A stretch of DNA of 52,915 bases from an uncultured Petrimonas sp. (GTDB lineage Bacteria > Bacteroidota > Bacteroidia > Bacteroidales > Dysgonomonadaceae). The notes beneath the pieces were generated by a model. That model saw nothing but the letters and a program-made list of their open reading frames with translations. It was not told where the DNA came from and made no database searches. The DNA lies in NCBI GenBank assembly GCA_934621705.1, contig CAKTUP010000001.1, positions 1 through 52,915 on the forward strand. Direction: 5' to 3'. Shown here piece by piece: positions 2,388 to 52,629 of this stretch. Position numbers and translations under genes: made by a program. Every line of letters starts with the position of its first letter. Within the stretch, counting starts at the first letter, position 1.

Positions 2388-2421
2388 AACTCGCAAACCC
2401 GGAACTCGCAACTCGTAACCC
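2388..2421. repeat. Heptad array in mtaB leader
   Basis: The motif AACTCG or AACCC recurs at offsets 0, 8, 15, 22 and 29, which is a seven-base period with one insertion. It ends 15 bases before the mtaB start codon. One of fourteen such arrays in the window. Confidence 0.6.
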
Positions 2422-2436
2422 ATAAAATAAGAATAA

Positions 2437-3756
2437 ATGATTGATCAAACTGTTTTTGAAAATAAAACGGCTGCATATTATACGTTAGGCTGTAAACTGA
2501 ATTTTGCCGAAACATCAGCCATCGGCAAGCAATTGCGAAATGCCGGTGTGATGCGCGCCCGAAAAGGGCAGAAAGCCGATGTGTGCGTTATTAACACCTG
2601 TTCCGTAACCGAATTGGCGGATAAAAAAGGACGGCAGGCCATTCGCAAGATGATCCAGAGCCATCCCGATGCATTTGTGGTGGTTACCGGTTGCTACGCC
2701 CAGCTAAAACCCGATGAAGTGGCTTCTATTGAAGGCGTGGATTTGGTGCTGGGTTCGGAACAAAAATTAGATGTAATTCAGTATCTGGACGATTTAAAGA
2801 AAAAGGACAAAGGCGAAGTGATCACATCCAAAACGCACCGGATAAGAACGTTTGTTCCATCCTGTTCTGCCGACGACCGCACGCGCTATTTCCTGAAAGT
2901 GCAGGACGGATGCGACTATTTCTGCTCGTTTTGCACCATTCCTTTTGCCCGCGGCAGAAGCCGCAACGGCTCCATTGCCGATCTGGTGAAACAGGCGCAG
3001 GATGTGGTGGTGCAGGGCGGCAAGGAAATTGTGCTCACGGGCGTGAATATCGGAGATTTCGGGCACACAACCAAGGAGACTTTTTTCGATTTGATAAAAG
3101 CTTTGGACGATGTGGAAGGTATTGAGCGTTTTCGTATTTCGTCCATCGAACCCAATTTGCTGTCGGACGAAATTATCGATTTTGTGGCGAACTCCAAGCG
3201 GTTTGCGCCGCATTTTCACACGCCGTTGCAAGCGGGAAGCGATGCCGTACTCAAGTTGATGAAACGGAAATACGATACCGCTTTGTTTCGCCACAAAATG
3301 GAGAAGATAAAATCGGTTATGCCACACGCTTTCATTGGTGTGGATGTGATTGTGGGGCTTCGCGGCGAGCTGGACGAGTATTTTGAAGAGAGCCGTGATT
3401 TTATCGAGTCGCTCGATTTTTCGCAGCTTCACGTTTTCACGTATTCCGAACGTTCGGGAACACAAGCATTGGAAATAGATCACGTGGTTGACCCGAAAAC
3501 CAAACACAACCGCAGCAAAGCGCTGCACGATATTTCAGACCGAAAATTACTCGGTTTCTACGAATCGCAAAAAGGGAGCGTCAGAAAAGTGCTTTTTGAG
3601 CATACGCGCCACGGAAACATGATGCACGGATTCACCGAAAATTACGTGAAAGTGTGCGCCGAGTATAATCCGTTGCTCGTCAACAAAATAACGGAAGTAA
3701 AAATCGGGGAATACAACGAAGACGAAATGGCTATGCAAGCCGTTTTCTTGGATTAA
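2437..3756 (+). CDS. mtaB: tRNA t6A37 methylthiotransferase MtaB
   Basis: A 439-residue radical-SAM methylthiotransferase that converts t6A37 to ms2t6A37 in tRNAs reading ANN codons. The N-terminal UPF0004 domain has its three cluster cysteines at about C19 (YTLGCKLNF), C55 (VINTCSVTE) and C86 (VVTGCYAQL). The radical-SAM cluster is C159, C163 and C166 in GCDYFCSFCTIP. The NTCSVTE signature and overall length fit MtaB rather than MiaB or RimO; the RimO paralogue is at 26169. It is first in a forward operon, 11 bases before the acyltransferase gene. The shared transcription with lipid A and glycosyl transfer genes is a common Bacteroidales arrangement and need not mean a functional link. Confidence 0.93.
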   Translation: MIDQTVFENKTAAYYTLGCKLNFAETSAIGKQLRNAGVMRARKGQKADVCVINTCSVTELADKKGRQAIRKMIQSHPDAFVVVTGCYAQLKPDEVASIEGVDLVLGSEQKLDVIQYLDDLKKKDKGEVITSKTHRIRTFVPSCSADDRTRYFLKVQDGCDYFCSFCTIPFARGRSRNGSIADLVKQAQDVVVQGGKEIVLTGVNIGDFGHTTKETFFDLIKALDDVEGIERFRISSIEPNLLSDEIIDFVANSKRFAPHFHTPLQAGSDAVLKLMKRKYDTALFRHKMEKIKSVMPHAFIGVDVIVGLRGELDEYFEESRDFIESLDFSQLHVFTYSERSGTQALEIDHVVDPKTKHNRSKALHDISDRKLLGFYESQKGSVRKVLFEHTRHGNMMHGFTENYVKVCAEYNPLLVNKITEVKIGEYNEDEMAMQAVFLD

Positions 3757-3767
3757 AAACGGAAAAA

Positions 3768-4676
3768 ATGGCCGGGAAAAGCAACAAAGGAATAGGTTTT
3801 CACCTGCTTTACGGCGTGGTCAATCTCATTGCCATGCTACCCTTTGGTGTGCTTTATTTTATTTCGGATTTTTTGTATATCATTGTTTATTATGTAGTTG
3901 GATATCGAAGAAAAGTAGTTCGCAAGAATCTTGTCAATTCGTTTCCCCACAAAAAAGAAGACGAAATTGTCCGGATAGAAAAGAAATTCTACCGCCATTT
4001 GTGCGATTACGGGGTGGAAACCATCAAAACGCTGCGCATATCGGAAAAGGAAATCCGAAAACGGATGGTTTTTAAGAATCCCGAAATTGTCAACCGGCTC
4101 ACCAAAGACGGAAATTCCTGCCTGCTCAGCCTGGGACATTACGGAAACTGGGAGTGGGTACCGTCAATCGGGTTGTATTTGTTGCCCGAAGTGGAACAAG
4201 GGCACGTGTACAAAACGCTGAAATCGAAAGCTTTCGACGAATTGTTCCTGAAAATCCGCTCCCGATTCAAACCCAGGCCTATCGAGATGAAAAGAATTTA
4301 CCGCACCATTATCCAAAACAGGAACGAAGGAAAGGCTATGGTCATCGGTTTTTTGTCCGACCAACGCCCGCCTGCCAACGGCAGCGATGAATACTGGACT
4401 ACGTTTCTTCATCAGGATACGCAGGTGCAGACCGGGATGGAGCGTATTGCACAGCAATTTGGTTTCGCGGTGGTTTATCTCGATATAAAAAAGGTAAAAC
4501 GCGGACATTATGTGGGCGATTTTTCGGTAATTACGGCCGACGGAAACGCCGAAGAGCCGCGAGCCATTATGGAAAAATATACGCGCAAACTCGAAGAAAC
4601 CATTTTACACGCCCCCGCTTATTATTTGTGGTCGCACAATAAATGGTCGAGAAAAAGAAACAGGAACGAAGAGTGA
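3768..4676 (+). CDS. Lipid A biosynthesis (lysophospholipid) acyltransferase, LpxL/HtrB family
   Basis: A 302-residue member of the LpxL/LpxM (HtrB) family, which adds secondary acyl chains to lipid A precursors at the inner membrane. The family HX4(D/E) catalytic motif is seen as H124-YGNW-E129. A hydrophobic N-terminal segment (about residues 12-45) would anchor it to the membrane, followed by a basic patch. Later conserved features include FLSDQRPP around residue 195 and the C-terminal YYLWSHNKWSRKR, a good match to the family end WxHxRWK. It lies 11 bases after mtaB, and its last codons overlap the next gene by 34 bases if that gene uses its ATG. Which acyl donor it uses cannot be told. 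Confidence 0.9.
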   Translation: MAGKSNKGIGFHLLYGVVNLIAMLPFGVLYFISDFLYIIVYYVVGYRRKVVRKNLVNSFPHKKEDEIVRIEKKFYRHLCDYGVETIKTLRISEKEIRKRMVFKNPEIVNRLTKDGNSCLLSLGHYGNWEWVPSIGLYLLPEVEQGHVYKTLKSKAFDELFLKIRSRFKPRPIEMKRIYRTIIQNRNEGKAMVIGFLSDQRPPANGSDEYWTTFLHQDTQVQTGMERIAQQFGFAVVYLDIKKVKRGHYVGDFSVITADGNAEEPRAIMEKYTRKLEETILHAPAYYLWSHNKWSRKRNRNEE

Positions 4677-5692
4677 AAACATCGGTAGTCATATTAAACT
4701 GGAACGGGCGCAAATTATTGGAACAATTTCTTCCAACGGTTTTGCAACACACGTTGAACGATGAAACCGAAGTGGTGGTTGCCGACAACGGCTCGTCGGA
4801 CGATTCTCTTGATTTTCTGAAAACCCGATTTCCGCAAGTCCCCGTCATTGTACTCGACAAAAATTACGGCTTCGCCGAAGGATACAATCGGGCGTTACAG
4901 CAGGTGCAATCGGAATACGTGGTGCTGCTCAATTCCGATGTGGAAACTACCGAAAACTGGCTTTCCACAATGGTTGGCTATTTAGACGCGCATCCCGAAG
5001 TTTCTGCTCTGCAACCAAAAATTCTGGCACAAACGCGCAAAACACACTTCGAATATGCCGGCGCCTGCGGCGGATTTATCGACCGTTTCGGCTATCCCTT
5101 TTGCCGCGGTCGGATTTTGGAGAACGTGGAAGAGGATTCGGGGCAATACGATTCCGTGATTCCCGTTTTCTGGGCTACCGGCGCTTGTTTGTGTGTTCGT
5201 CGCAAAGATTATTTTGAAGCCGGAGGCTTAGACGCGCGCTTTTTCGCTCACATGGAAGAGATTGATCTTTGCTGGCGGTTAAATGCACGGGGAAAACGGG
5301 TTGAGTGCCTGCCGCAATCGGTGGTTTATCACGTGGGAGCTGCTTCGCTGGCCAAAGAAAATCCGAGAAAAACGTACCTTAATTTTCGCAACAATCTGTT
5401 GATGTTGTACAAAAACATACCCACGAAAAAGTTGGTTTTTGTGTTTACCGTAAGATTGATTTTAGATGCGTTAGCATACTTTCATTTGCTGGCCAGAGGA
5501 AAGTTCAGCAACGCGAAATCGGTTTGGGAAGCGCATAAGGATTTCTATAAAATGAGATCGGATTTTAAGCCAGATCGTCGGGAAAACATGGCGAGAAGGG
5601 TTGTTGACCAGATTCCTGTGAAATTTCGCGAAAGTATTTTGTGGAATTATTATGTGAAAGGGAAGAAAACATACGCTGCAATTTTCAAATAA
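4643..5692 (+). CDS. Family 2 glycosyltransferase (rhamnosyl/dTDP-sugar type)
   Basis: A GT-A fold glycosyltransferase (GT2). The N-terminal signature is TSVVILNWNGRKLLEQF, with VVADNGSSDDS next and the metal-binding region VVLLNSDVET around residue 95. The acceptor-side helix has ARFFAHMEEIDLCWR, which resembles rhamnosyltransferase-like GT2 enzymes. A hydrophobic region near residues 265-285 may contact the membrane. The ATG at 4643 overlaps the acyltransferase gene by 34 bases and adds a very basic leader, MVEKKKQERR. A GTG at 4673, overlapping the upstream TGA as GTGA, would start exactly at the family's usual N-terminus and is a serious alternative. Location beside a lipid A gene fits surface polysaccharide or LPS assembly; the sugar is unknown. 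Confidence 0.88.
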   Translation: MVEKKKQERRVKTSVVILNWNGRKLLEQFLPTVLQHTLNDETEVVVADNGSSDDSLDFLKTRFPQVPVIVLDKNYGFAEGYNRALQQVQSEYVVLLNSDVETTENWLSTMVGYLDAHPEVSALQPKILAQTRKTHFEYAGACGGFIDRFGYPFCRGRILENVEEDSGQYDSVIPVFWATGACLCVRRKDYFEAGGLDARFFAHMEEIDLCWRLNARGKRVECLPQSVVYHVGAASLAKENPRKTYLNFRNNLLMLYKNIPTKKLVFVFTVRLILDALAYFHLLARGKFSNAKSVWEAHKDFYKMRSDFKPDRRENMARRVVDQIPVKFRESILWNYYVKGKKTYAAIFK

Positions 5693-5767
5693 ACATTTTA
5701 ACACAGCGTCTGACGCATTGATGATATTTTTTGTCTGTCAGACCGGTGATCGGTCAGACGAGGGAGG

Positions 5768-6481
5768 TCACTCAAAATTAAAACTCAGCACAATCATTCG
5801 TTGCGTGGCTTTGCTAAGCGATAACGGATATTTCATCAACTCCCTGTCCACCAGATCGAAGCGGTCTTTTTCGAGAATATCGGTCAGTCCGAAACAGAAT
5901 TTCAGTTCGGGGCAAAGCTTGAAGTAAGGCAAATAAAAATCGCACCCAACACCGATCTCAATCCCGTAATCGTAAGGTTTCAGCAAAACAGGCTGGTTTT
6001 TTCGCGAAGCCAGCTCCACGCTGCCATATCCGCCCGCGATAAGATACGGACGATAATTATTTATCCTGCCTGCCGTGAATTTCACCTGCAACGGCAGCGT
6101 TATGTAATTGTTTCTCACACCGGTTCTGAACTCTTCGCCCGAAGTTTGCTCTTTGAAAACAAAATCCTTGCTTCCCAGGTGTAATGTGGGAATAGCGCGC
6201 AGGTTCATGTATGGGTTCAGGTACAAATCGGTGATAAGCCCCACGCTGAAACCGGGCGAGTAGGAGGGGATTTCTGAAAACCACACTTCGCCGTTTTCGT
6301 TCGCGTATCCCGATTGCGTCAGCATCAAATCCTGCGTGTGCATGCCGACCATAAATCCAAAATGAAAGATTTTGTAATCGGCATACGGCTGATTCTGTAA
6401 TTTTCGCTGTTGGCCGAAAACGACTGCCGATAGCATCCAAAGGGCAAAAAACAAAGCGGTTGACTGTTTCATCTGTTTCAT
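5768..6481 (-). CDS. porT: PorT-family outer membrane beta-barrel protein
   Basis: A 237-residue protein with a signal peptide (cut near VFGQQ) and an outer-membrane beta-barrel pattern of alternating aromatic strands ending in a terminal Phe-Glu after LSFN. Length and the conserved features FHFGFMVGMHTQDL, YNYxTLP-like NNYITLPLQVKF, YLIAGGYGS and GVGCDFYLPYFKLCPELKFCFGL fit PorT, an outer-membrane component needed for type IX secretion in Porphyromonas gingivalis. The assignment rests on remembered similarity. It is a single gene, convergent with the glycosyltransferase operon and divergent from the ferredoxin. Other T9SS genes are not in the window. The general PorT-like barrel family includes proteins unrelated to secretion, so the gene symbol is less sure than the fold. 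Confidence 0.72.
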   Translation of the reverse strand: MKQMKQSTALFFALWMLSAVVFGQQRKLQNQPYADYKIFHFGFMVGMHTQDLMLTQSGYANENGEVWFSEIPSYSPGFSVGLITDLYLNPYMNLRAIPTLHLGSKDFVFKEQTSGEEFRTGVRNNYITLPLQVKFTAGRINNYRPYLIAGGYGSVELASRKNQPVLLKPYDYGIEIGVGCDFYLPYFKLCPELKFCFGLTDILEKDRFDLVDRELMKYPLSLSKATQRMIVLSFNFE

Positions 6482-6681
6482 AAACGGTTTTTCGGTGAGG
6501 TTATTGTAAAAACTGCAATAAAAAAATAGTTGTTTTCAATTGCTCATTATTTAGACATCGTAAAAATTACACCGTATCGCGCGGTATCAAATCAAAGATA
6601 ATCAGCGAAATATTACTTTGCACCACTTGTTGATACGGATAAAGACACTTCTTTCGCCGAGATCAGTCGCAAAATAAAAGT

Positions 6682-6713
6682 TTTGTGTTCTTAAAAAAAA
6701 CTATGTATCTTTG
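6682..6713 (+). promoter_or_regulatory. Bacteroidota-type promoter of the ferredoxin gene
   Basis: TTTG at 6682-6685 and TATCTTTG at 6706-6713 are separated by exactly 20 bases, matching the Bacteroidota sigma consensus TTTG / TAnnTTTG. Transcription would start near 6720, giving a leader of about 50 bases. Confidence 0.7.
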
Positions 6714-6770
6714 TGCGAAATTTTATAACAGTAAAATAATCACACCACATTAACTAACAAATTATTTATT

Positions 6771-6938
6771 ATGGCTTACGTAATTAATGAAGATTGTATT
6801 GCTTGTGGAACTTGCATTGACGAATGCCCTGTTGAAGCTATTTCTGAAGGTGATATCTACGTGATTGATCCCGATGTTTGCACCGATTGCGGCACTTGCG
6901 CCGAAGTTTGTCCTACAGAAGCAATTCATCCGGCTTAA
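6771..6938 (+). CDS. Two-cluster [4Fe-4S] ferredoxin
   Basis: A 55-residue bacterial-type 2[4Fe-4S] ferredoxin. It has two classic motifs in symmetric halves: CIACGTCIDECPVEA and CTDCGTCAEVCPTEA, each with CxxCxxCxxxCP spacing. Such ferredoxins are low-potential electron carriers in anaerobes and would serve the 2-oxoacid:ferredoxin oxidoreductase encoded at the other end of this window, though that pairing is inference. The gene has its own strong promoter at 6682-6713 and an intrinsic terminator directly downstream at 6966, so it is a monocistronic unit. Acidic composition is typical of the family. Confidence 0.95.
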   Translation: MAYVINEDCIACGTCIDECPVEAISEGDIYVIDPDVCTDCGTCAEVCPTEAIHPA

Positions 6939-6965
6939 TATATACCGGACAAGAAAGGTAAAAAG

Positions 6966-6991
6966 GCCGAGCAATTTTTCGCTCGGCTTTT
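6966..6991 (+). terminator. Intrinsic terminator after the ferredoxin gene
   Basis: GCCGAGC (6966-6972) and GCTCGGC (6981-6987) form a perfect 7-bp stem with an 8-base loop, followed by TTTTCTTG and further T. It lies 27 bases past the ferredoxin stop codon. Confidence 0.85.
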
Positions 6992-7020
6992 CTTGTTTTT
7001 AAACGATACCGCAAACAAAA

Positions 7021-7042
7021 AGCGCCACTTTTCGGGTGGCGC
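7021..7042 (-). terminator. Intrinsic terminator after gap (possibly bidirectional)
   Basis: GCGCCAC and GTGGCGC form a perfect 7-bp stem with a 7-base loop. Read on the reverse strand it is followed by TTTTTG, 28 bases past the gap stop codon. T residues on the other side could also let it act as a back-up forward terminator. Confidence 0.75.
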
Positions 7043-7069
7043 TTTTGCGTATGATGGAAATAAACGATA

Positions 7070-8095
<1,026 letters not shown>

Positions 8096-8142
8096 TTAAG
8101 AATGTTCCTAAATACTATCTTTTTAACTGAGTTACAAAATTA

Positions 8143-8610
8143 CTAAATGTTTTTATTTTAACGAAATTATTCGTGGTAAAAACTGTGAAATAATAAGTTT
8201 GTGGAATAATTATGGTAACGATTAACATAGATAATGCCCGCGGCGATAATTGCATGCAGAAAAATTGGGAATAACCCGAATTGTAGTGGATTTTAGTCTA
8301 TATCTGTAGTTTTCTACTTTTAACTATTACAGTGCGTTGCATATTAGTTAAAATATTTATTACAATGGCTACAAATATTTTTGTCACGCTGCGCCTGGAA
8401 GTACCGCCCAACTAAGCTGTAAGCTATGGAGTAAAGACAATGGTTGTAGTAAATGAATTTGGTTATAAAGTTAATATGCTGATTATTAGTAATTTAAATT
8501 GCAGCTATTTTTGTATTTTCATATACACTACACAAATTTTCGGGTTTGATCCCTCGGAGACTTGGAGGGGGCGATGGGGTGACAAGAGATAAGAGAAAGA
8601 CAAGCGGACA
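8143..8610. other. Gene-free stretch upstream of gap
   Basis: About 560 bases separate gap from sixA (8075-8634). The part next to gap is AT-rich and probably holds its promoter. The remainder has only very short frames, for example a 16-residue one at 8365, and an isolated TATTTTTG at 8506-8513 reading forward with no gene after it. I see no RNA gene or recognisable gene remnant; decayed sequence is possible. Confidence 0.5.
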
Positions 8611-8631
8611 TCAAACTCAAAACTCAAAACT
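8611..8631. repeat. Heptad array after sixA
   Basis: Three copies of a seven-base unit around ACTCAAA, ending four bases before the sixA stop codon on the opposite reading sense. The shortest of the clear arrays. Confidence 0.55.
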
Positions 8632-8634
8632 ATT

Positions 8635-9123
8635 TCACAATTCCCTCGCCAATTTCATCCACTGAAAACGGGCATTTTTCGGAGATATTTCTTTCCAGGT
8701 TGAGGCATCGAAATCCAGGCAAACTACCGATGCCGTAGGCAGATTATCGAGTCTTAGCCCGAAGTAATTGACAAGGTCGGTCAATCCCGGGTTGTGCCCA
8801 ATGAGTAAGCAGGTTTCGGTTTCTGCGTGAATTTTGGAAATGCTTTTCAAAATGTCGCCCACTGCGGCTAAGTATAACTCTTTGTCCGATTCGATCCTGT
8901 TGTGTGGGTAACTCAGGCTAATGGCGGCAAGCGTTGCGGTTTCCATCGTTCTTTTCGCTGCGGAAGCCAGTATCAAATCGGGCTTTCCGCACGTTTCGAG
9001 CAAAAAACGCCCCATTTCCGATGAGTTTTTCTTGCCTCTTTCGTTCAACGGACGGTCATAATCGTCCAAATATTCATTGTCCCACGAGGATTTGCCGTGG
9101 CGCATTACGATCAATCTTTTCAT
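8635..9123 (-). CDS. sixA: SixA-type phosphohistidine phosphatase
   Basis: A 162-residue histidine phosphatase (phosphoglycerate mutase-like fold). The catalytic signature RHGKSSWD follows MKRLIVM at the N-terminus, and the second catalytic His lies in LLIGHNPGLTDLVNYF. SixA proteins remove phosphate from phosphohistidine in signalling or PTS proteins. The start at 9123 matches the family; a longer frame to 9204 is rejected because it runs into the upstream MarR gene. It is the last gene of the DUF2024-membrane protein-hemoglobin-MarR operon, 4 bases after marR. That placement suggests a link between phosphohistidine turnover and the redox-type regulator, which is inference. Confidence 0.85.
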   Translation of the reverse strand: MKRLIVMRHGKSSWDNEYLDDYDRPLNERGKKNSSEMGRFLLETCGKPDLILASAAKRTMETATLAAISLSYPHNRIESDKELYLAAVGDILKSISKIHAETETCLLIGHNPGLTDLVNYFGLRLDNLPTASVVCLDFDASTWKEISPKNARFQWMKLAREL

Positions 9124-9127
9124 AACT

Positions 9128-10112: not shown

Positions 10113-10116
10113 ACTT

Positions 10117-21716: not shown

Positions 21717-21750
21717 AAAAAGAAGTAACTATCTGATAATTACTTCTTTT
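21717..21750 (+). terminator. Terminator hairpin after the two-component operon
   Basis: AAAAGAAGTAA and TTACTTCTTTT form a long A/T-rich stem around a short loop, with flanking A and T runs on both sides. It begins right at the regulator's stop codon and could terminate both this operon and the opposing tRNA transcript. Confidence 0.7.
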
Positions 21751-21825
21751 GGAGCGGAAGACGGGGCTCAAACCCGCGACCCTCAGCTTGGAAGGCTAAT
21801 GCTCTATCGACTGAGCTACTTCCGC
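21750..21825 (-). tRNA. tRNA-Gly (anticodon TCC)
   Basis: The reverse strand folds as a full cloverleaf: acceptor GCGGAAG/CTTCCGC, D-arm AGCTCAGTCGATAGAGC, anticodon loop CTTCCAA with anticodon TCC, and T-arm GCGGGTTTGAGCCCCGT. Discriminator T73 fits bacterial tRNA-Gly. The 3' CCA appears to be encoded (21750-21752). Confidence 0.97.
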
Positions 21826-21833
21826 AAATTTAT

Positions 21834-21889
21834 TTACGATTTTAGATTTACGAGTTACGATTTAAAATTGTAAATCCGAAATCGGCAAT
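21834..21889. repeat. Heptad array between tRNA-Gly and tRNA-Tyr
   Basis: Eight successive seven-base units: TTACGAT, TTTAGAT, TTACGAG, TTACGAT, TTAAAAT, TGTAAAT, CCGAAAT and CGGCAAT. The array fills nearly all of the spacer between the two tRNA genes. Confidence 0.7.
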
Positions 21890-21893
21890 CGGT

Positions 21894-21979
21894 TGGTGGG
21901 CAGTGATGGATTCGAACCACCGAAGTCGAATGACAGCTGAGTTACAGTCAGCCCCAGTTGGCCACTTTGGTAACTGCCC
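21894..21979 (-). tRNA. tRNA-Tyr (anticodon GTA)
   Basis: A reverse-strand cloverleaf with acceptor GGGCAGT/ACTGCCC, anticodon loop CTGTAAC giving GTA, a long variable arm as expected for tRNA-Tyr, and T-loop GGTTCGAATCC. The CCA end is encoded (21894-21896). It is upstream of tRNA-Gly in the same transcript. Confidence 0.97.
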
Positions 21980-22005
21980 CTTTACCTTTAATTAATTCAA
22001 AATGT

Positions 22006-22061
22006 ATAATTAAGAATGCATAATTTTGAATTATACACTGTGCATTATGCATTAATTCTGC
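22006..22061. repeat. Heptad array between tRNA-Tyr and ribH
   Basis: Eight seven-base units, including ATAATTA, AGAATGC, ATAATTT, TGAATTA and two TGCATTA copies. Nineteen consecutive bases (22006-22024) recur exactly at 49148-49166 in another array. Confidence 0.65.
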
Positions 22062-24811: not shown

Positions 24812-24845
24812 AGCTTCCCTGCAAGAACTTGTGGGGAAGTTTTTT
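24812..24845 (+). terminator. Intrinsic terminator after the L28-L33-DUF4295 operon
   Basis: CTTCCC and GGGAAG, extended inward by TGCAAG/CTTGTG, form a long stem with a two-base loop, followed by a run of seven T. Confidence 0.85.
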
Positions 24846-24882
24846 ATTTAGTATTTAGTAGATTTGCGGGGGAAAACTGGCG

Positions 24883-24910
24883 GTTAGCTGTTAGCTGTTG
24901 GCTATTAGCT
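24883..24910. repeat. Heptad array upstream of ftsY, copy A
   Basis: Four seven-base units: GTTAGCT twice, GTTGGCT and ATTAGCT. Sixteen bases (24887-24902) are exactly complementary to 25005-25020 in copy B, so the two arrays are inverted relative to each other. Confidence 0.7.
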
Positions 24911-25003: not shown

Positions 25004-25038
25004 TGCCAACAGCTAACAGCCAATAGCCAAAAGCCAAA
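25004..25038. repeat. Heptad array upstream of ftsY, copy B (inverted)
   Basis: Five seven-base units: TGCCAAC, AGCTAAC, AGCCAAT, and AGCCAAA twice. It ends 24 bases before ftsY. With copy A it could form a 16-bp stem enclosing about 100 bases. Confidence 0.7.
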
Positions 25039-26016: not shown

Positions 26017-26051
26017 TACGGGTTACGAGTTACGAGTTACGGGTTACGGGT
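26017..26051. repeat. Heptad array directly after ftsY
   Basis: Five units, TACGGGT, TACGAGT, TACGAGT, TACGGGT and TACGGGT, beginning at the first base after the ftsY stop codon. This is one of the cleanest arrays. Confidence 0.75.
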
Positions 26052-26152
26052 TTGCGTCCGGCTGCTTGAAGCCGGCCTGACGCGTTAGCATTCAATAACA
26101 AGAAAATCAAAATGGAAATTATTATAAAGGATTCTTTCCTTAAATTCCCCTT

Positions 26153-26166
26153 TAGGGGTTAGGGGT
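26153..26166. repeat. Heptad doublet just before rimO
   Basis: Two TAGGGGT units end two bases before the rimO ATG at 26169. The preceding CCCCTTT can pair with the first unit as a small hairpin that would sit at the ribosome-binding region. Confidence 0.5.
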
Positions 26167-26168
26167 TT

Positions 26169-42590: not shown

Positions 42591-42596
42591 TTTTTT

Positions 42597-42673
42597 AGAC
42601 GTTTGAAGTTTGACGTTTAAGGTTTAGGGTTCAGGGTTGGTTTTCATAACTTTAAACCCTGAACGTTGAACTT
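42597..42673. repeat. Heptad array filling the sucC-sucD spacer
   Basis: Eleven consecutive seven-base units, for example AGACGTT, TGAAGTT, TGACGTT, TAAGGTT, TAGGGTT, CAGGGTT, TAAACCC, TGAACGT and TGAACTT. The array runs from the second base of the sucC stop codon to six bases before the sucD start, so almost the whole spacer is repeat. Confidence 0.75.
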
Positions 42674-46491: not shown

Positions 46492-46510
46492 GGCGTTAAG
46501 CCAAGAACAA

Positions 46511-46564
46511 CCCTAAACATCAAACATCAAACATCAAACATCAAACGTTAACATCAAACATTTT
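46511..46564. repeat. Heptad array between the TonB receptor and PepSY-like gene
   Basis: CCCTAAA, then four CATCAAA units, a six-base CGTTAA, and another CATCAAA, reaching the next gene's start within a few bases. The repeat is nearly perfect here. Confidence 0.7.
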
Positions 46565-46565
46565 T

Positions 46566-47087: not shown

Positions 47088-47095
47088 ATATCCGG

Positions 47096-47704
47096 TCAGT
47101 GATTCTGTAAATCCACGTCTTCAATCGAAATAATTCGTTTGGAGATTGCGTAAATAGTTAGCCCCGACTGGCTTCGAATACCGGTTTTGGTAGTGATGTT
47201 TTTTCGATGCGTAACCACCGTGTGAACGCTGATATGGAGCGAATCGGCAATTTCCTTGTTGGAATATCCGTGAACCAGTTTGGTAAGCACATCGAGTTCC
47301 CTGTCGGTGAGGTTATCGTCGTTTGAAGTAGCTTTCAATTCGTTGTTGTTGCCCGCTTTTTGCAGTTTGGAGAGCACCTGTTCCACGGTATCGAAAATGG
47401 TAAACGACGCGTCCAGCAGCGCCAGCGAATTATTGTCCACAATACCTAAATTAATGCCCACGATGGAGAATTCGGGATGATTTTTTCGGATCCGTTTCAC
47501 TTCTTTCTCCCGATTTACCAGCAACAACGGATTGGTGATCAATACATCCAGCTTTTTGGAATGCAGCGTGGCTTCCAGATCTTCCAGCGAATTTGGTTTA
47601 CAGATGACGCAATCCAAATCCGATTGCGAAAGCACCGCGTGCAACCCTTCGTAAATAATGGGCGAATGCACCATCACGGCAATATGTAACCGTTGCCTGT
47701 TCAT
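47096..47704 (-). CDS. LuxR-type regulator with degenerate receiver (pseudo-receiver)
   Basis: A 202-residue two-domain regulator. The C-terminal GerE helix-turn-helix is intact: LTDRELDVLTKLVHGYSNKEIADSLHISVHTVVTHRKN. The N-terminal receiver-like domain lacks phosphorylation residues: the acidic pair is replaced (VMVHSP) and the phosphoacceptor position in LDVLITNPLLL is Asn58. It is therefore likely controlled without phosphorylation. Its start overlaps the hemerythrin gene by 4 bases, so the two proteins are made together and probably function together. Confidence 0.88.
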   Translation of the reverse strand: MNRQRLHIAVMVHSPIIYEGLHAVLSQSDLDCVICKPNSLEDLEATLHSKKLDVLITNPLLLVNREKEVKRIRKNHPEFSIVGINLGIVDNNSLALLDASFTIFDTVEQVLSKLQKAGNNNELKATSNDDNLTDRELDVLTKLVHGYSNKEIADSLHISVHTVVTHRKNITTKTGIRSQSGLTIYAISKRIISIEDVDLQNH

Positions 47705-48402
47705 ACCCGCTCCATATTATACCCGAACGGAATCAAAATGGTTTCTTCGATGAGCGAGTGGATATACAGGTCGTATTCCAGCTCGTAGAGCGAGAAAAGC
47801 AGTTTTCGCCGCAGGTTTAAATCGCTGTCAATGGTTACGTATTTCAGTAACAGGTTTTTTATGTCCTTCAGCTTCAGTTCGATATCGGTGTGGTGTTCGC
47901 TGTATTCCTTGGCTGAATATAAGTCGTTTTTGATGTTTTCGCGGTTACCGATCAGTTCGATGAAATAAGGAAAGGCCACCGTGTCTTCGTAATCCAGGTG
48001 CTCGATAACTTCGGTAAAATATTCGTTGAAAAACTCTTCCAGCAGTTTTAACTCCTTTTCGGGATGATTTTCCTGCAGCTGCCTGATGTATGAACTTATC
48101 TGCGGGTATTTATCGTGGCGGTAGTAATCGTGGCTGTTTCTCAGGAAAGCGATCACCCGTTTTACATCGTCAAGCGAATCTATGGGATTGTCTTTCGGTT
48201 TGAAGCCGTTATACAGATTGGCCACCGAAACAAAAAGCTTTTCGCTGATCCCTTTTTCGGCGCACAGTTGGGCAACCGTGAGGTCATCTACCCGGAAATC
48301 GATATCGAAATGCTGCATCATCAACAACAGCGACGGGTTCTCTTCAATTAAACCGAACAGCTTCATCCCCGGTTTTATATAGGTTCGCGAAACGTTGTAC
48401 AT
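47701..48402 (-). CDS. Hemerythrin-like di-iron protein
   Basis: A 233-residue protein with a roughly 75-residue N-terminal part resembling the ScdA/RIC leader (LFGLIEENPSLLLMMQHFDIDFRV, TVAQLCAEKGI) and a C-terminal hemerythrin four-helix bundle. Candidate di-iron ligands are His in RNSHDYYRHDKY, His and Glu in EVIEHLDYEDT, the pair in SEHHTDIE, and His and Glu in YIHSLIEETILIPF. Such proteins sense or carry oxygen or NO, or help repair iron centres. TATCTTTG at 48453-48460 on this strand is the probable -7 element; a heptad array lies between it and the start. Confidence 0.88.
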   Translation of the reverse strand: MYNVSRTYIKPGMKLFGLIEENPSLLLMMQHFDIDFRVDDLTVAQLCAEKGISEKLFVSVANLYNGFKPKDNPIDSLDDVKRVIAFLRNSHDYYRHDKYPQISSYIRQLQENHPEKELKLLEEFFNEYFTEVIEHLDYEDTVAFPYFIELIGNRENIKNDLYSAKEYSEHHTDIELKLKDIKNLLLKYVTIDSDLNLRRKLLFSLYELEYDLYIHSLIEETILIPFGYNMERV

Positions 48403-48406
48403 AATT

Positions 48407-48441
48407 GTTAGTTCTGAGTTTTCAGTTTTTAGTTCTGAGTG
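48407..48441. repeat. Heptad array in the hemerythrin leader
   Basis: Five seven-base units, GTTAGTT, CTGAGTT, TTCAGTT, TTTAGTT and CTGAGTG, ending four bases before the hemerythrin start codon and downstream of its predicted -7 element, so it would be transcribed in the 5' leader. Confidence 0.7.
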
Positions 48442-48611
48442 GTTTGCGTGTGCAAAGATACGTGTTTTTGTTTAGATTGGTTCTAAGTAAGGTGAATGGA
48501 TGTCCGCGAAGTGATTTCGAATCGCCCCGTGAGTTTAATAATTTACACCCAAACTTCTTTCCCGGTCTTGATTTTTATGGCTATTTTTGCATTTCGAAAG
48601 AAATAGTAATT

Positions 48612-49151
48612 ATGCAGGATTTCAACTCACTTCTTATCAATCGGCGGAGTTACCGAAAATATACGGACGAACCCTTATCGGGCGATGAAGTTCAACTTAT
48701 TCTGGAAGCCGCGCTGCTTTCGCCCACGTCCAAAAACAAGCATTCGTGGGAGTTTGTGGTGGTGGAAGACAAGGAAATGCTCGCCAAGCTCTCCAACTGC
48801 AAGCCGCACAGCGCCGGTTTTGTGGCCGATGCGGCATTGGCGGTAGTGGTTGTCGGCAATCCGCTGGAAGCCGATCCGTGGATAGAAGACGCGTCCATTG
48901 CTGCCATCAATATGCAACTGCAAGCCGAAGAGCTGAACATCGGCAGTTGCTGGGTTCAGGTTCGCGGGCGCGAATTTTCGGAAACCGTGACGTCGGGAGA
49001 ATACATCAACGATGTGCTCGATATCCCCATGCCGCTGGAAGTGCTGTGCATCGTTTCTTTCGGGAAAAAAGTGAAGCAACGTTCGCCCAACATCACAGAT
49101 AACTTGTTGTGGGAGAAGATGCATATTGGCAAGTATAGAATTAATGCATAA
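48612..49151 (+). CDS. Nitroreductase-family flavoprotein
   Basis: A 179-residue FMN-dependent oxidoreductase of the nitroreductase family. FMN phosphate contacts are expected in the N-terminal RRSYRKYTDEPLSG, and the central AALLSPTSKNKHSWEFVVVED and the later GSCWVQVRGREF fit the fold. The ATG at 48612 is chosen; the upstream frame from 48405 is not credible. The last codons and stop of the gene are part of the heptad array that follows (NA-stop). The physiological substrate is unknown. Confidence 0.9.
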   Translation: MQDFNSLLINRRSYRKYTDEPLSGDEVQLILEAALLSPTSKNKHSWEFVVVEDKEMLAKLSNCKPHSAGFVADAALAVVVVGNPLEADPWIEDASIAAINMQLQAEELNIGSCWVQVRGREFSETVTSGEYINDVLDIPMPLEVLCIVSFGKKVKQRSPNITDNLLWEKMHIGKYRINA

Positions 49152-49177
49152 TTAAGAATGCATAATGCATAATTTTG
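49143..49177. repeat. Heptad array starting in the nitroreductase stop region
   Basis: Five units: AATGCAT, AATTAAG, AATGCAT, AATGCAT, AATTTTG. The first two units contain the last codons and stop of the nitroreductase gene. The 19 bases 49148-49166 are identical to 22006-22024. Confidence 0.75.
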
Positions 49178-49186
49178 GGGGCTGTA

Positions 49187-49277
49187 CCCCATCACCCATC
49201 TCCCATCACCCATCATCCATCATCCATCATCCATCATCCATCATCCATCACCCATCACCCATCACCCATCACCCATC
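49187..49277. repeat. Thirteen-unit heptad array before kdsC
   Basis: Thirteen consecutive seven-base units, ACCCATC or ATCCATC with CCCCATC and TCCCATC at the start. A block of five identical ATCCATC copies sits inside two blocks of ACCCATC. It ends 11 bases before kdsC. The high purity suggests recent expansion and makes copy-number change likely. Confidence 0.85.
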
Positions 49278-49288
49278 AATCTCAATAT

Positions 49289-49810
49289 ATGAGCGCAATC
49301 AATTACGATCTCACCAAAATAAAATCTTTCATTTTCGATGTGGACGGCGTTTTATCCCGTCAAACCGTAACGCTGGCCGAAGACGGACAACCGATGCGCT
49401 CGACCAACGTGCGCGATGGGTATGCCATTCATCACGCCGTAAGGTCAGGGTTGGATGTGGCCGTTATCACCGGCGGACGGTCCGAAATCGTGCGGCATCG
49501 CTTGGAGTCGCTGGGCGTGAAGCACATTTACCTGAAATCGTACGACAAAACCGAGCAACTGAAAGAATACATGGATGCCACCGGATTCAAGCCGGAAGAA
49601 ATCATGTACGTGGGCGACGATATTATCGATTACCTGGTTATGAAGCAGGTGGGATTGCCCGTGGCTCCTGCCGATGCCTGCCCCGAAATCAAGGAAATAT
49701 CGCTGTACATTTCTCCCGTAATCGGCGGCGAAGGCGTTGCCCGCGATGTTATTGAACAGGTAATGAAAGTTCAGGGCAAATGGATGGTAAACGATGCGTT
49801 TTACTGGTAA
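49289..49810 (+). CDS. kdsC: 3-deoxy-D-manno-octulosonate 8-phosphate phosphatase (KdsC-type HAD)
   Basis: A 173-residue HAD phosphatase that hydrolyses KDO-8-phosphate in LPS core synthesis. Motif I is FDVDGVLS with the nucleophile Asp, motif II lies in VAVITGGRSE and motif IV in VGDDIIDYLVM. The small cap-less form and length fit KdsC. The start at 49289 is right after the heptad array; a frame beginning at 49175 would translate the repeat (PSSITHH-type repeats) and is rejected. Confidence 0.92.
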   Translation: MSAINYDLTKIKSFIFDVDGVLSRQTVTLAEDGQPMRSTNVRDGYAIHHAVRSGLDVAVITGGRSEIVRHRLESLGVKHIYLKSYDKTEQLKEYMDATGFKPEEIMYVGDDIIDYLVMKQVGLPVAPADACPEIKEISLYISPVIGGEGVARDVIEQVMKVQGKWMVNDAFYW

Positions 49811-49985
49811 ACGAAAATAGTTGAAAAATAATATTTCGAATCTTTTTATTTCAGTTCTGTTTTTGTTTCTCGTTTTTTAATGAAAATCACACTCTTTTGT
49901 TACGAAAAAGTAGCGTTGAGTTATAAATCGATTCTTTATCGAAGTAGTTTTAAATAACTTATGCATAAAATTTAACGCAGAAAAG

Positions 49986-50016
49986 TTGAAAATGATTGAA
50001 ACATAAACTAATTTTG
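49986..50016 (+). promoter_or_regulatory. Bacteroidota-type promoter of the ferredoxin oxidoreductase operon
   Basis: TTG (49986-49988) and TAATTTTG (50009-50016) are exactly 20 bases apart, 31 bases before the first gene. Confidence 0.75.
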
Positions 50017-50047
50017 CGAAAACCAACAAAAACCACACAAATAAGAA

Positions 50048-50281
50048 ATGGCAAAAGTACAAGGTTATGTAGTTGTTAATACGCAGCGTTGCAAAGGATG
50101 CAATCTTTGCGTTGTGTCATGTCCCACGGACGTGCTTGAATTGCAGCCGCGCGAAGTGAATGATCGCGGTTATCATTACGTTTACATGAAAACTCCCGAA
50201 GAGTGCATCGGTTGCTTCAATTGTGGAACCGTCTGTCCCGAAGGGTGCTTAACCGTTTATCGGAAGCGGGTGGAAAAGTAG
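50048..50281 (+). CDS. korD: 2-oxoacid:ferredoxin oxidoreductase, delta (ferredoxin-like) subunit
   Basis: A 77-residue subunit with two [4Fe-4S] motifs: CKGCNLCVVSCPTDVLEL and CIGCFNCGTVCPEGCLTV. It carries electrons from the TPP centre to external ferredoxin. First gene of the four-subunit operon. The substrate (2-oxoglutarate or branched-chain 2-oxoacid) cannot be settled; relatives in Bacteroides are annotated both as Kor and Vor. Confidence 0.92.
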   Translation: MAKVQGYVVVNTQRCKGCNLCVVSCPTDVLELQPREVNDRGYHYVYMKTPEECIGCFNCGTVCPEGCLTVYRKRVEK

Positions 50282-50301
50282 AGACGCGATTAATCGCGTC
50301 T
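50282..50301. repeat. Perfect 20-bp palindrome between korD and korA
   Basis: AGACGCGATT followed by its exact complement AATCGCGTCT. It begins two bases after the korD stop codon. The element resembles a palindrome I recall as widespread in Bacteroidota and some other genomes; it could act in RNA as a hairpin affecting relative subunit expression. Confidence 0.75.
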
Positions 50302-50379
50302 GCGAAGAATTCACTGCCGCAAATGACTAAAATTTAAGTCTTATACTAAGTAGAAAATCAAAAAACTGAAAATTACATT

Positions 50380-51465
50380 ATGACAGAAGACGTAACATTG
50401 ATGAAGGGAAACGAAGCTGTCGCGTACGCGGCCATCCGCTACGGCGTTGACGGATACTTCGGATATCCCATTACCCCGCAATCCGAAATTATAGAAACAC
50501 TTATGGAAGCCGCTCCCTGGAAAACAACAGGAATGGTGGTGCTTCAGGCCGAGAGCGAAGTGGCCGCCATTAATATGGTTTACGGCGGCGCTGCCTGCGG
50601 AAAATATTCCATGACCACATCGTCGAGCCCGGGCATAAGCCTTAAGCAGGAAGGAATTTCCTACCTGGCCGGCGCCGAACTTCCCTGCCTTATCGTGAAC
50701 GTACAGCGCGGCGGTCCCGGACTGGGAACTATTCAGCCGTCGCAATCCGATTATTTTCAGACCGTAAAGGGTGGGGGACACGGCGATTACCGATTGATTA
50801 CGCTGGCACCCAATTCCGTACAGGAAATGGCCGATTTTGTATCGTTGGGTTTCGATTTGGCTTTCAAATACCGCAATCCGGCCATGATACTTACTGATGG
50901 CGTTATCGGGCAGATGATGGAAAAAGTGAAACTTCCCGAATACAAACGCCGCCGCACCGAACAGGAAATTCGCGAGCAATGCCCGTGGGCAACGCTGGGA
51001 AAAACAAAAGACAGAGAACCCAACATCATCACGTCGCTGGAATTGGATGCGGCGTTGATGGAGAAAAACAACGATCGTTTTCAGGCAAAATACCGGATAA
51101 TTGAGCAGGAAGAAGTTCGATACGAAGAATTTCAGTGCGAAGATGCCGAATACTTGCTGGTGGCTTTCGGTTCCGCAGCACGTATTTGTCTTAAAACCAT
51201 CGATTTGGCAAGACAGGAAGGAATAAAAGTTGGCCTGCTTCGTCCCATCACATTGTGGCCTTTCCCCAGCAAGATACTCAATGAATATGCCGGAAAAGCG
51301 AAAGGTATGCTCACCGTTGAACTCAACGCCGGACAAATGGTGGAAGATGTTCGACTGGCCGTGAACGGAAAAGTTCCCGTGGAACACTACGGACGTTTGG
51401 GTGGAATTGTTCCCACTCCCGACGGAGTACTGGATGCGTTGAAGGAAAAAATTGTAAATCAATAG
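50380..51465 (+). CDS. korA: 2-oxoacid:ferredoxin oxidoreductase, alpha subunit
   Basis: A 361-residue subunit containing the pyrimidine-binding part of the TPP site. Early residues EAVAYAAIRYGVDGYFGYPITPQSEI are diagnostic for the KorA/VorB group. LIVNVQRGGPGLGTIQPSQSDYF follows, and the C-terminal half has the transketolase-like VGLLRPITLWPFP. In Bacteroides relatives it is often called VorB (3-methyl-2-oxobutanoate). It follows the palindrome by 79 bases. Confidence 0.93.
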   Translation: MTEDVTLMKGNEAVAYAAIRYGVDGYFGYPITPQSEIIETLMEAAPWKTTGMVVLQAESEVAAINMVYGGAACGKYSMTTSSSPGISLKQEGISYLAGAELPCLIVNVQRGGPGLGTIQPSQSDYFQTVKGGGHGDYRLITLAPNSVQEMADFVSLGFDLAFKYRNPAMILTDGVIGQMMEKVKLPEYKRRRTEQEIREQCPWATLGKTKDREPNIITSLELDAALMEKNNDRFQAKYRIIEQEEVRYEEFQCEDAEYLLVAFGSAARICLKTIDLARQEGIKVGLLRPITLWPFPSKILNEYAGKAKGMLTVELNAGQMVEDVRLAVNGKVPVEHYGRLGGIVPTPDGVLDALKEKIVNQ

Positions 51466-51617
51466 TAATTCGATAGATATTCAGTTGTAATTCGTTGTTT
51501 CGATAAATATTTCAACGCCGCAACCAATTACGATTGAATAACGGCGTAACCAAATAGCGCGAAGCAAATTACAATCAATAAACCGAATAATTAATTATTA
51601 CACAAACATAAATAACC

Positions 51618-51779
51618 GTGAGCCCCAAATTACAACAATTATTTTCGATGCTGTTTTTGTTTTTCTTTATAGCAACAATAGTCGTTTATTTTGTTTCAGA
51701 CAAAAACATGAAATTAACCTGGATTACAGGAGCTTGCGCCCTTGTTTGTTATTTTCTATACAGATTCTCAAAAAGATAA
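51618..51779 (+). CDS. Possible small membrane protein inside the Kor operon
   Basis: A 53-residue frame with a GTG start at 51618 (ATG alternative at 51648). It has two hydrophobic segments, LFLFFFIATIVVYFV (about residues 13-26) and ITGACALVCYFLY (about 36-48), separated by DKNMKLTW and ending in a basic tail RFSKR. It finishes 7 bases before korB. There is no family match I know. Real translation is unproven, but the two-helix layout in an otherwise empty spacer is suggestive. Confidence 0.5.
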   Translation: MSPKLQQLFSMLFLFFFIATIVVYFVSDKNMKLTWITGACALVCYFLYRFSKR

Positions 51780-51786
51780 AACTATT

Positions 51787-52548
51787 ATGGATTTAAAAAG
51801 TATAGTTAGCCCCGAAAACCTGGTTTACGATAAACCGGAACTCATGAACGACAACCACATGCACTATTGCCCGGGTTGTTCGCACGGCGTTGTTCACAAG
51901 GTAATTGCCGAAGTGATAAAAGATCTCGACCTGCAGGAAAAAACCATCGGCATCGCGCCGGTTGGATGCGCGGTTTTCGCGTACAAATACCTTGATATCG
52001 ACTGGCAGGAAGCCGCTCACGGACGCGCTCCGGCCCTGGCAACCGCCGCCAAACGGCTCAATCCCGATAAAATGGTGTTCACTTATCAGGGCGACGGCGA
52101 TTTAGCTGCCATCGGAACTGCCGAAACCATTCACGCTGCCAATCGTGGAGAAAATATCGCCATCGTTTTCATTAACAATGGCATTTACGGAATGACCGGT
52201 GGACAAATGGCACCCACAACGCTCAGCAAAATGGTAACATCCACCAGTCCCGATGGTCGCGACGTGCAAACCATGGGCGGCCCGCTCAAAATTCTGGATA
52301 TGCTGGCATTGCTCGACGGCGTTTGCCTGGCAACACGCGTAAGCGTTCATACCGCCGCCGCTGCCAAGAAAACCAAGCGAATGATTAAACTGGCGTTCGA
52401 AAATGCCATGGCAGGCAAAGGAACTTCCATCGTTGAAGTGGTATCAACCTGCAACGCCGGCTGGAAAATGACTCCCGCCGCCGCCAACGATTGGATGGTG
52501 GAAAATATGTTCCCCGTATTCCCGATAGGAGATCTTAAGAATATTTAA
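51787..52548 (+). CDS. korB: 2-oxoacid:ferredoxin oxidoreductase, beta (TPP) subunit
   Basis: A 253-residue subunit that binds the thiamine pyrophosphate and an iron-sulfur cluster. CPGCSHGVVHKV has the cluster-binding cysteines, GDGDLAAIG holds the TPP-binding GDG motif, and FINNGIYGMTGGQMAPT is the conserved NN/TPP-Mg region. The start MDLKSIVSPENL at 51787 is used; an in-frame start 15 codons earlier overlaps the small membrane frame and is rejected. The korB stop codon forms the first unit of the heptad array that follows. Confidence 0.94.
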   Translation: MDLKSIVSPENLVYDKPELMNDNHMHYCPGCSHGVVHKVIAEVIKDLDLQEKTIGIAPVGCAVFAYKYLDIDWQEAAHGRAPALATAAKRLNPDKMVFTYQGDGDLAAIGTAETIHAANRGENIAIVFINNGIYGMTGGQMAPTTLSKMVTSTSPDGRDVQTMGGPLKILDMLALLDGVCLATRVSVHTAAAAKKTKRMIKLAFENAMAGKGTSIVEVVSTCNAGWKMTPAAANDWMVENMFPVFPIGDLKNI

Positions 52549-52629
52549 GTTGTCAGTTAACAGTTTTCAGTTGACAGTAAACGAGTAAACAGCTGAACGT
52601 TAAACATTAAACTTTGAACATTAAACTAA
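52546..52629. repeat. Twelve-unit heptad array filling the korB-korC spacer
   Basis: Twelve consecutive seven-base units beginning with TAAGTTG, whose TAA is the korB stop codon. Others include TCAGTTA, ACAGTTT, TCAGTTG, ACAGTAA, GAACGTT, AAACATT and AAACTAA. The array ends five bases before the korC ATG, so the whole operon spacer is repeat. Confidence 0.75.

What the first reader, a model, noticed from the sequence alone, without database searches (positions are those of the whole stretch)
2388..52629. Fourteen intergenic arrays all with a seven-base period but different consensus sequences
Arrays at 2388, 8611, 21834, 22006, 24883, 25004, 26017, 26153, 42597, 46511, 48407, 49143, 49187 and 52546 each repeat a unit of seven bases, from two to thirteen times. 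Units differ from locus to locus (TACGAGT, ATCCATC, CATCAAA, ACTCAAA, TCAGTTA and others), yet the period is always seven, and no array occurs inside a gene body apart from stop-codon overlaps. A common period with unrelated sequence points to a mechanism that sets spacing (slippage or an enzyme with a seven-base footprint) rather than to copies of one mobile element. Cyanobacterial STRR heptanucleotide repeats are the nearest known analogy; I know of no description in Bacteroidota.
Basis: partly seen in the sequence, partly recalled or inferred. Interest (0 to 1): 0.85.

Follow-up and report, generated by a model that had tools for sequence, protein, structure and literature searches.

The report
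Heptamer-armed small insertion elements in Bacteroidota
Short seven-base repeat arrays between the genes of this Bacteroidota bacterium are real, and they look like the ends of a family of small insertions that elsewhere carry one small helical-protein gene between two such arrays, so repeats long put down to copying slips may mark an overlooked mobile element.

Summary
All fourteen arrays are present, and intergenic lag-7 periodicity is far above shuffled controls (z 6.45). Two premises fail: octamer arrays of the same style occur in sister genomes, and units are not unrelated but form families with a fixed direction. Arrays anchored at a gene boundary read outward in one orientation (68 of 80 scored in the window and eight family genomes; control 52%), at starts and stops alike, with a C-poor outward strand. 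Some junctions are empty in sisters.

The key result lies outside the window. Genes of the 'four helix bundle / 23S rRNA intervening sequence protein' family (TIGR02436, PF05635) have 7- or 8-base arrays on both sides in 17 of 19 plasmid loci and 19 of 29 viral-collection loci, against 12 of 1690 control genes; arms mostly share a unit, inverted. In one relative, arrays plus gene form one 436-bp insert absent from two sisters.

I read the window's arrays as gene-less members of this family, enlarged by slippage. The gene-array association is strong; mobility, and membership of the window's arrays, are inferred. Heptamer repeats, inverted pairs and Bacteroidota cases were already published; my searches showed no report of the gene link.

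The parts
2387..2425 (-). array, outward unit GAGTTAC type, ends 11 bp before the start of gene 2437 (MtaB-like)
8613..8631 (-). array, outward unit AGTTTTG, 3 bp beyond the stop of gene 8635-9123 (minus strand)
21832..21892 (+). degenerate array ATTTACG/AGTTACG beside tRNA-Gly (21750-21825)
21993..22054 (.). TAATGCA / TGCATTA array pair beside tRNA-Tyr (21894-21979); period 14 by TRF
24840..24860 (+). minor array TTTAGTA
24880..24910 (+). left arm, unit GTTAGCT, upstream of ftsY; inverted partner of 25005-25038
25005..25038 (-). right arm, outward unit GTTGGCT/GTTAGCT, 24 bp before the ftsY start
26017..26168 (+). 152-bp stretch between ftsY and rimO (array 26017-26052, unit GTTACGA/GTTACGG; hairpin; TTAGGGG pair 26152-26167, which reads against the polarity rule); the two genes overlap by 4 bp in G042, G043, G045, G050; ATGA stands at both ends
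42595..42638 (+). left arm, units GTTTGAA/GTTTAGG/GTTCAGG
42648..42671 (-). inverted right arm (AAC-type units) abutting the end of the succinate-CoA ligase beta gene
   Evidence: coordinates counted by hand from that sequence
46515..46561 (-). array, outward unit GTTTGAT, 4-14 bp before the start of gene 46566 (end depends on method)
48402..48440 (+). array, unit AGTTCTG/AGTTTTC, at the start of gene 47701-48402 (minus strand)
49142..49173 (+). array TAATGCA overlapping the stop of gene 48612-49151
49188..49278 (-). longest array, 13 copies, outward unit TGATGGG/TGATGGA, 10 bp before the start of gene 49289
52548..52578 (+). left arm, unit CAGTTAA (reverse complement of the TAACTGA family), at a stop codon
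52596..52626 (-). right arm, outward unit GTTTAAT/GTTCAAA, at the start of the next gene (its start is uncertain, the window ends inside it); junction much shorter in G042, G043, G050

Best explanation
The arrays are the terminal arms of a family of small dispersed insertion elements that enter intergenic junctions. The gene-bearing form is: a 7- or 8-base tandem array, then one gene of the TIGR02436/PF05635 four-helix-bundle family (23S rRNA intervening-sequence protein, IVP; distant relative of DGR Avd), then mostly the same array inverted, with the C-poor strand reading into the element. The window's arrays are gene-less or decayed forms (solo arms, or inverted pairs round a short spacer). 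Shown: the gene-array association, inversion, strand bias, one gene-bearing insert against two empty sites, several gene-less length differences against sisters. Inferred: that the gene-less arrays descend from or are moved by the same system, that the four-helix protein has a part in it, and that replication slippage enlarges arrays after insertion. The chemistry of insertion is not known; the 436-bp insert has room for no other long gene.
For: IVP genes with arrays on both sides: 17 of 19 plasmid loci, the other 2 on one side; 19 of 29 distinct viral-collection genes, 7 on one side, 3 none; 6 of 6 strong hits in other held sequence, 3 of them in sequence not chosen for arrays. Controls: both-sided in 12 of 1690 genes over six sets (two of the 12 can be IVP genes themselves); shuffled flanks 7 of 950, 3 of 380 and 0 of 580. 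Of 36 both-armed loci, arms share a unit inverted in 30, direct in 3, none shared in 3; G>C reading inward in 72 arms, the reverse in 8. G043: a 436-bp insert (array, IVP gene, array) where G047 and G050 have about 20 bp without arrays; its arms share 3 or more 6-mers with 7 of 20 other arrays of that genome against 2 of 173 elsewhere. Gene-less arrays show the same polarity (68 of 80), strand bias (72 of 93 G>C; in the window 14 of 15), periods 7 and 8, and position (53% within 15 bp of a gene against 21% expected). Sister junctions overlap or are shorter at 26017, 52549, 24792, 42591, 46492.
Against: No IVP gene in the window, and its own genome is not held. In gene-less regions the two arms share a unit in only 4 of 21 cases, about as between regions (15%), unlike IVP loci. 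The junction ftsY-rimO carries other genes in G044 and G040 (lipoprotein-like; DUF1016-like by recall), so IVP is not the only cargo beside arrays. Only one gene-bearing insert was set against empty sites, and no clear target duplication is seen there. The unit match between IVP arms and the genome's other arrays holds in G043, G019 (5 of 10 against 35 of 184) and G008 (2 of 3 against 16 of 192), but not in Trichormus (2 of 16 against 20 of 177). One-sided arrays are common beside control genes (241 of 1690), so one-sided cases carry little weight. Whether IVP tracks array number over the 101 genomes was not tested. One window array (26152-26167) reads against the rule.
Confidence: 0.55

Rival explanations
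1. Pure replication slippage: any intergenic heptamer can be duplicated because about 7 nt sit in the polymerase; arrays arise in place and drift.
For: Period-7 dominance in the window; heptanucleotides were reported as the most abundant repeat class in most genomes surveyed, with this explanation proposed (as told in PMC4679880, and PMC4692102). Units vary along arrays as slippage of mixed units would give.
Against: Period 8 in sister genomes and in the same genome; outward polarity at starts and stops; arrays at junctions with no intergenic DNA in sisters; bracketing of one gene family in four phyla.
Confidence: 0.18
2. IVP genes are passengers that preferentially enter pre-existing arrays or the spacer of pre-existing inverted pairs.
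For: Gene-less inverted pairs exist (window 24880/25005); Xanthomonas has 70-75 convergent pairs (PMC4692102 section 10). Other genes also stand beside arrays.
Against: In G043 the sister sites have neither array nor gene (one case). Entry into a single array would give direct arms, seen in 3 of 36 both-armed loci.
Confidence: 0.12
3. Telomere-like 3' end extension: breaks in intergenic DNA get C-poor heptamers or octamers added to both 3' ends by a templated polymerase and are then joined.
For: Both arms read 5' to 3' into the gap with a C-poor strand; arms of one gap are independent in unit.
Against: RVT_1 presence is unrelated to array richness: 12 of 54 genomes with and 11 of 47 without a match are array-rich. 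Does not explain the IVP gene.
Confidence: 0.07
4. Regulatory sites: arrays are kept as binding sites for an RNA- or DNA-binding protein acting near start codons.
For: TAACTGA sets mostly point toward start codons (PMC4679880 section 7); several window arrays lie within 25 bp of a start.
Against: Unit type and presence turn over between sister species at the same gene pair; stop-side arrays are as common and as polar.
Confidence: 0.08

Closest known systems
Heptanucleotide long simple sequence repeats, cyanobacterial STRR (recalled), and TAACTGA repeats of Beggiatoaceae, Cyanobacteria and five Bacteroidetes (PMC4679880; abstract, sections 3, 7, 10, 24 and one passage seen)
   Same: Intergenic, degenerate 7-base tandem units, related units mixed within arrays; in BOGUAY 147 of 170 sets point toward a start codon and 12 toward a stop, which I take as the same outward polarity (unit TCAGTTA); same unit at window 52546
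   Different: No gene partner named there; octamers and a general polarity not described in the parts read
GGGAATC repeats of Xanthomonas and GGGGAYT of Nostoc (PMC4692102; passages and section 10 read)
   Same: G-rich heptamers, 70 and 75 convergent inverted pairs, array much nearer its 5' ORF (28 nt) than its downstream ORF (160 nt)
   Different: Studied as G-quadruplexes; XCC0516, the best PDB match of the IVP protein here, and 23S/S23 do not occur in its main text
Intervening sequences of 23S rRNA genes with the IVP open reading frame (recalled)
   Same: Same protein family (TIGR02436, PF05635) carried by a small insert
   Different: Here the inserts lie between protein genes and have tandem-array arms
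REPIN/RAYT systems (PMC3116915 seen in a search listing with the start of its abstract; rest recalled)
   Same: One gene flanked by the short repeats that also occur gene-less at many intergenic sites
   Different: RAYT is a Y1 transposase and REPs are palindromes; here the gene is a four-helix protein and the repeats are tandem arrays; Y1_Tnp presence is only weakly related to array number (rank test p 0.045, Fisher 0.34)

Membership tests
Heptanucleotide intergenic repeats (LSSR/STRR/TAACTGA class) | Tandem units of 7 bases in excess of chance | tested here: met
Heptanucleotide intergenic repeats (LSSR/STRR/TAACTGA class) | Mainly in intergenic DNA | tested here: met
   Runs of 9 or more lag-7 matches: 9 intergenic, 1 in genes
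Heptanucleotide intergenic repeats (LSSR/STRR/TAACTGA class) | Same polarity in a cyanobacterium | tested here: inconclusive
   450 kb of Trichormus plasmids: 13 arrays, 9 consistent, 3 not, 1 tie; nearer subset of 8 gave 0 and 3
IVP (four-helix) element | IVP gene bracketed by arrays | tested here: not met
   No IVP gene in the window; the window arrays are filed only as possible gene-less relatives
IVP (four-helix) element | C-poor strand reading into the element (outward from host genes) | tested here: met
   Window: G>C outward in 14 of 15 arrays; 26152-26167 is the exception
IVP (four-helix) element | Both arms with the same unit, inverted | tested here: inconclusive
   Met at 24880/25005 and by eye at 42595/42648; not at 49142/49188
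IVP (four-helix) element | Insertion against empty sister sites | tested here: met
   Junction 26017: genes overlap in four sisters; 52549: overlap in three by tblastn ends, start uncertain
Palindromic MITE or REP/REPIN | Conserved inverted ends of one sequence | tested here: not met
   Arms unlike in 17 of 21 paired regions
Telomerase-like RT product | RVT_1 enzyme in array-rich genomes | tested here: not met
   11 of 23 array-rich genomes lack a match (genomes may be incomplete)

The most novel reading that the evidence does not exclude
A widespread class of minimal mobile elements, in at least four bacterial phyla, consists of one four-helix-bundle (Avd-like) protein gene between inverted tandem heptamer or octamer arrays, and spawns gene-less array insertions genome-wide. 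This would explain heptameric repeats in Bacteroidota, Cyanobacteria, Xanthomonas and Beggiatoaceae by a transposase-free mechanism not yet described.
Probability: 0.4. Interest if true: 0.93.

Novelty: new variant of a known kind. Interest (0 to 1): 0.8.

Why it matters
The over-abundance of seven-base repeats in bacteria has stood since 2007 with a polymerase-slippage guess (as told in PMC4679880). A gene family usually found between two such arrays gives the repeats a testable partner, gives a large protein family of unclear role (1238 relatives at E 0.001 in one search) a candidate function, and opens the question to deletion and mobility experiments in laboratory strains.

Tried and rejected
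Telomerase-like reverse transcriptase as the maker (RVT_1): no relation to array richness. RAYT/IS200 (Y1_Tnp): rank test p 0.045, Fisher 0.34; not pursued. RNA stems between arms, or a palindromic MITE: arms independent. General boundary composition as cause of polarity: array-free boundaries 52% consistent, highest of 30 samplings 67%; full pools of single genomes go both ways (G064 69 to 45, G013 25 to 11, window 12 to 21, G020 10 to 21). A conserved three-base core: mismatch heterogeneity is high, but the control does not allow for slippage of mixed units, and adjacency was not significant; inconclusive. Ordered succession of unit types: clear in G043 (0.896 against highest shuffle 0.828), not in G064 or G037, borderline in G020. 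Larger gene gain and loss at array junctions: not tested. Distal-end motif of arrays: not general. Rfam: only the two tRNAs. IVP protein against phages: no match.

Earlier polarity versions: (arrays flipped singly) gave p below 0.05 in 4 of 4 sets; (regions flipped together, other cut-offs) in 2 of 11; (arms split at the midpoint) 128 against 53, with no effect beyond 30 bp from a gene (28 against 27). The 'anchored' rule (30 bp near, 45 bp far) was chosen after these. Of 97 anchored arrays in 18 sets, one search used the 88 in the nine sets with at least 4; 9 arrays in six sets were left out, and 8 of the 88 got no score.

Rows left out: of 26 plasmid records with IVP, 19 were read through hits (L308-L326); NC_007412 (H15) is L307, counted apart; H8, H14, H18, H19, H21, H22 were not read. 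Sixteen of the 19 are cyanobacterial, and L312, L314, L320, L326 have closely similar arms, so they are not independent. Of 32 viral loci 3 identical genes were dropped (L339, L342, L356); L327-L329, L331-L332 and L338-L343 are close copies. The three viral misses (L330, L349, L355) are counted as misses although L330 and L349 show degenerate repeats by eye. L074 (weak IVP hit, E 1e-7) has no arrays and is not among the 6 strong hits. Of those 6, G063 (L274) has beside a run of N a left arm that is really a 4-base repeat. In the control, the G043 and Trichormus sets contain their own IVP gene.
Full report
What the window is. 52.9 kb, 44% GC, Bacteroidota (PorT/SprT, SusC/RagA). Its FtsY is 96% identical to that of a Bacteroidia MAG (L001); a relative in the same set (G043) has a four-helix protein 99% identical to one named from Petrimonas sp. 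(Dysgonomonadaceae). The whole genome is not held, so relatives were used: 101 genomes of the family of G001, handles only.

Observation. TRF, the sequences and a degenerate-array scan confirm the listed arrays. Intergenic lag-7 excess is z 6.45 and lag 14 z 6.0 against 300 shuffles; coding DNA shows no lag-7 peak. In 400 kb each of relatives, lag 7 peaks in G064 (z 12.7) and G043 (9.9) with harmonics, but not in G042 (2.8) or G079 (0.5). The excess is therefore a property of some genomes, not of the whole family. In the phylum, 220 of 395 genomes hold at least one GTT-N4 x5 array; by my rough estimate chance would give about one per hundred genomes or fewer.

Not always seven. The planned control, GTT-N5 x5 (period 8), found arrays in 31 of 101 genomes, very many in G071, G076 and G063. 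G064 has 28 period-7 and 22 period-8 arrays over about 2 expected each.

Polarity. Arrays lie against gene boundaries (of 131 with room, 53% within 15 bp; 21% if placed at random). Read outward from the nearest gene, a unit family tends to keep one direction. Leave-one-region-out scoring of 88 anchored arrays from nine sets (the window and eight family genomes) gave 68 consistent, 12 not, 8 unscored; 29 to 5 at starts and 39 to 7 at stops. Scoring by sense of the neighbouring gene gave 54 to 26, by plus strand 28 to 52. Array-free boundaries gave 52%. The outward strand has more G than C in 72 of 93 anchored arrays, against 340 of 591 start and 218 of 463 stop boundaries without arrays (ties left out of the boundary counts). 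In the window this holds for 14 of 15 arrays. Five of the nine sets (G013, G019, G020, G037, G071) were sampled through array-bearing contigs; that selects for arrays, not for direction. The effect is absent for arms further than 30 bp from a gene. The published Xanthomonas and Beggiatoaceae repeats show a like geometry, so polarity is partly known; I have not seen it stated as a general rule in what I read.

Insertion. At ftsY-rimO the genes overlap by 4 bp in G042, G043, G045 and G050; the window has 152 bp with arrays and ATGA at both ends; G044 has 822 bp and G040 1174 bp with unrelated genes. At 52549 three sisters appear to overlap by tblastn ends, though the window's gene start there is uncertain. 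At 42591 and 49152 sisters carry arrays of other units at the same place.

The gene link. Comparing a G043 stretch with sisters showed a 436-bp insert with an array at each end and one gene; G047 and G050 have about 20 bp there without arrays. The gene is TIGR02436 / PF05635, with solved relatives 2gsc (XCC0516) and 2rld. In other held sequence all 6 strong members have arrays on both sides (for G063 one arm is doubtful); three of these (G043, L079, L307) were fetched for other reasons. I then took a sample not chosen for arrays: 26 plasmid records, 19 read. Seventeen have arrays on both sides and two on one side; hosts are cyanobacteria (16), Riemerella, Azospirillum and Gemmatirosa (one each, all three with both arms). 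Four of the 19 lie between functionally linked genes: cas10 and cmr3, cas6 and cas4 (twice), the two ribonucleotide reductase subunits. A second sample, 32 viral-collection loci, gave 29 distinct genes: 19 both, 7 one, 3 none. Control genes with arrays on both sides: Trichormus 3 of 371, G043 4 of 299, G064 2 of 349, G079 2 of 325, G042 0 of 298, window 1 of 48; on one side 241 of 1690. Where both arms exist they share a unit inverted in 30 of 36, direct in 3, none in 3; 72 arms are G>C reading inward, 8 the reverse. The two plasmid members with arrays on one side are annotated as split or shortened genes.

Joining the two. The polarity of gene-less arrays (C-poor strand outward from host genes) is the polarity of IVP arms (C-poor strand inward). 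In G043, and on small numbers in G008 and G019, the IVP arms resemble the genome's other arrays; in Trichormus they do not beyond background. Periods (7, some 8), degeneracy, boundary position and empty sister sites agree. Against this, gene-less arms of one region are mostly of different units and no IVP gene is in the window. My reading, at 0.55, is that the window's arrays are gene-less or eroded members; the association of IVP genes with arrays itself I hold near certain.

How it might work. Shown: length differences at junctions, arm geometry, gene association. Inferred: the four-helix protein, a distant relative of the DGR accessory protein Avd (profile match below that model's cut-off; nucleic-acid binding of that family is recalled), recognises the array or its transcript; slippage alters copy number afterwards. 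ORF listing of the G043 insert shows no other long reading frame, so no transposase, integrase or reverse transcriptase of usual size lies in it.

Literature. Ten searches of the open PMC library listed no paper whose title or abstract start links this gene family with heptamer arrays. I saw listings only, plus parts of PMC4679880 and PMC4692102 and passages of PMC9879509, PMC6749651 and PMC5524665; the last merely lists four-helix genes between guanylate kinase and an adenylyltransferase gene in Flavobacterium. Only 2 of the 10 searches named the family as 'four helix bundle protein' and one as 'S23 ribosomal protein'; subscription papers and preprints are not held.

Noticed in passing
window 51447-51583: A different dispersed repeat (11-base internal period, AATTGAATAACAAT type) with many matches across G043, G044, G045, G048, G050; period-11 arrays also recur in G042, G043, G079.
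   Followed up: no
G079 fetched stretch (L214-L233), e.g. at 83358, 109373, 139166: Arrays of an 11-base unit ATTAGAACCAT/ATTAGAACGAG; 16 period-11 arrays of all units against 0.6 expected.
   Followed up: no
L205 and other G043 stretches: Unit types follow the same order along many arrays (GTGAAGA, CAAGAACC, AAGACA, then GTCTAAAAA by eye), more than unit-shuffled controls, as if copied as composites.
   Followed up: partly
L316, L309, L310: Four-helix genes sit inside CRISPR gene clusters (between cas10 and cmr3; between cas6 and cas4) of cyanobacterial plasmids.
   Followed up: no
window 26017-26168: The four bases shared by the ftsY stop and rimO start in sisters (ATGA) stand at both ends of the window's extra stretch, as a short target duplication or selection for both codons would give.
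   Followed up: partly
G042 chromosome: 22 RVT_1 matches, many with the same score, in a genome without GTT-N4 x5 arrays.
   Followed up: no
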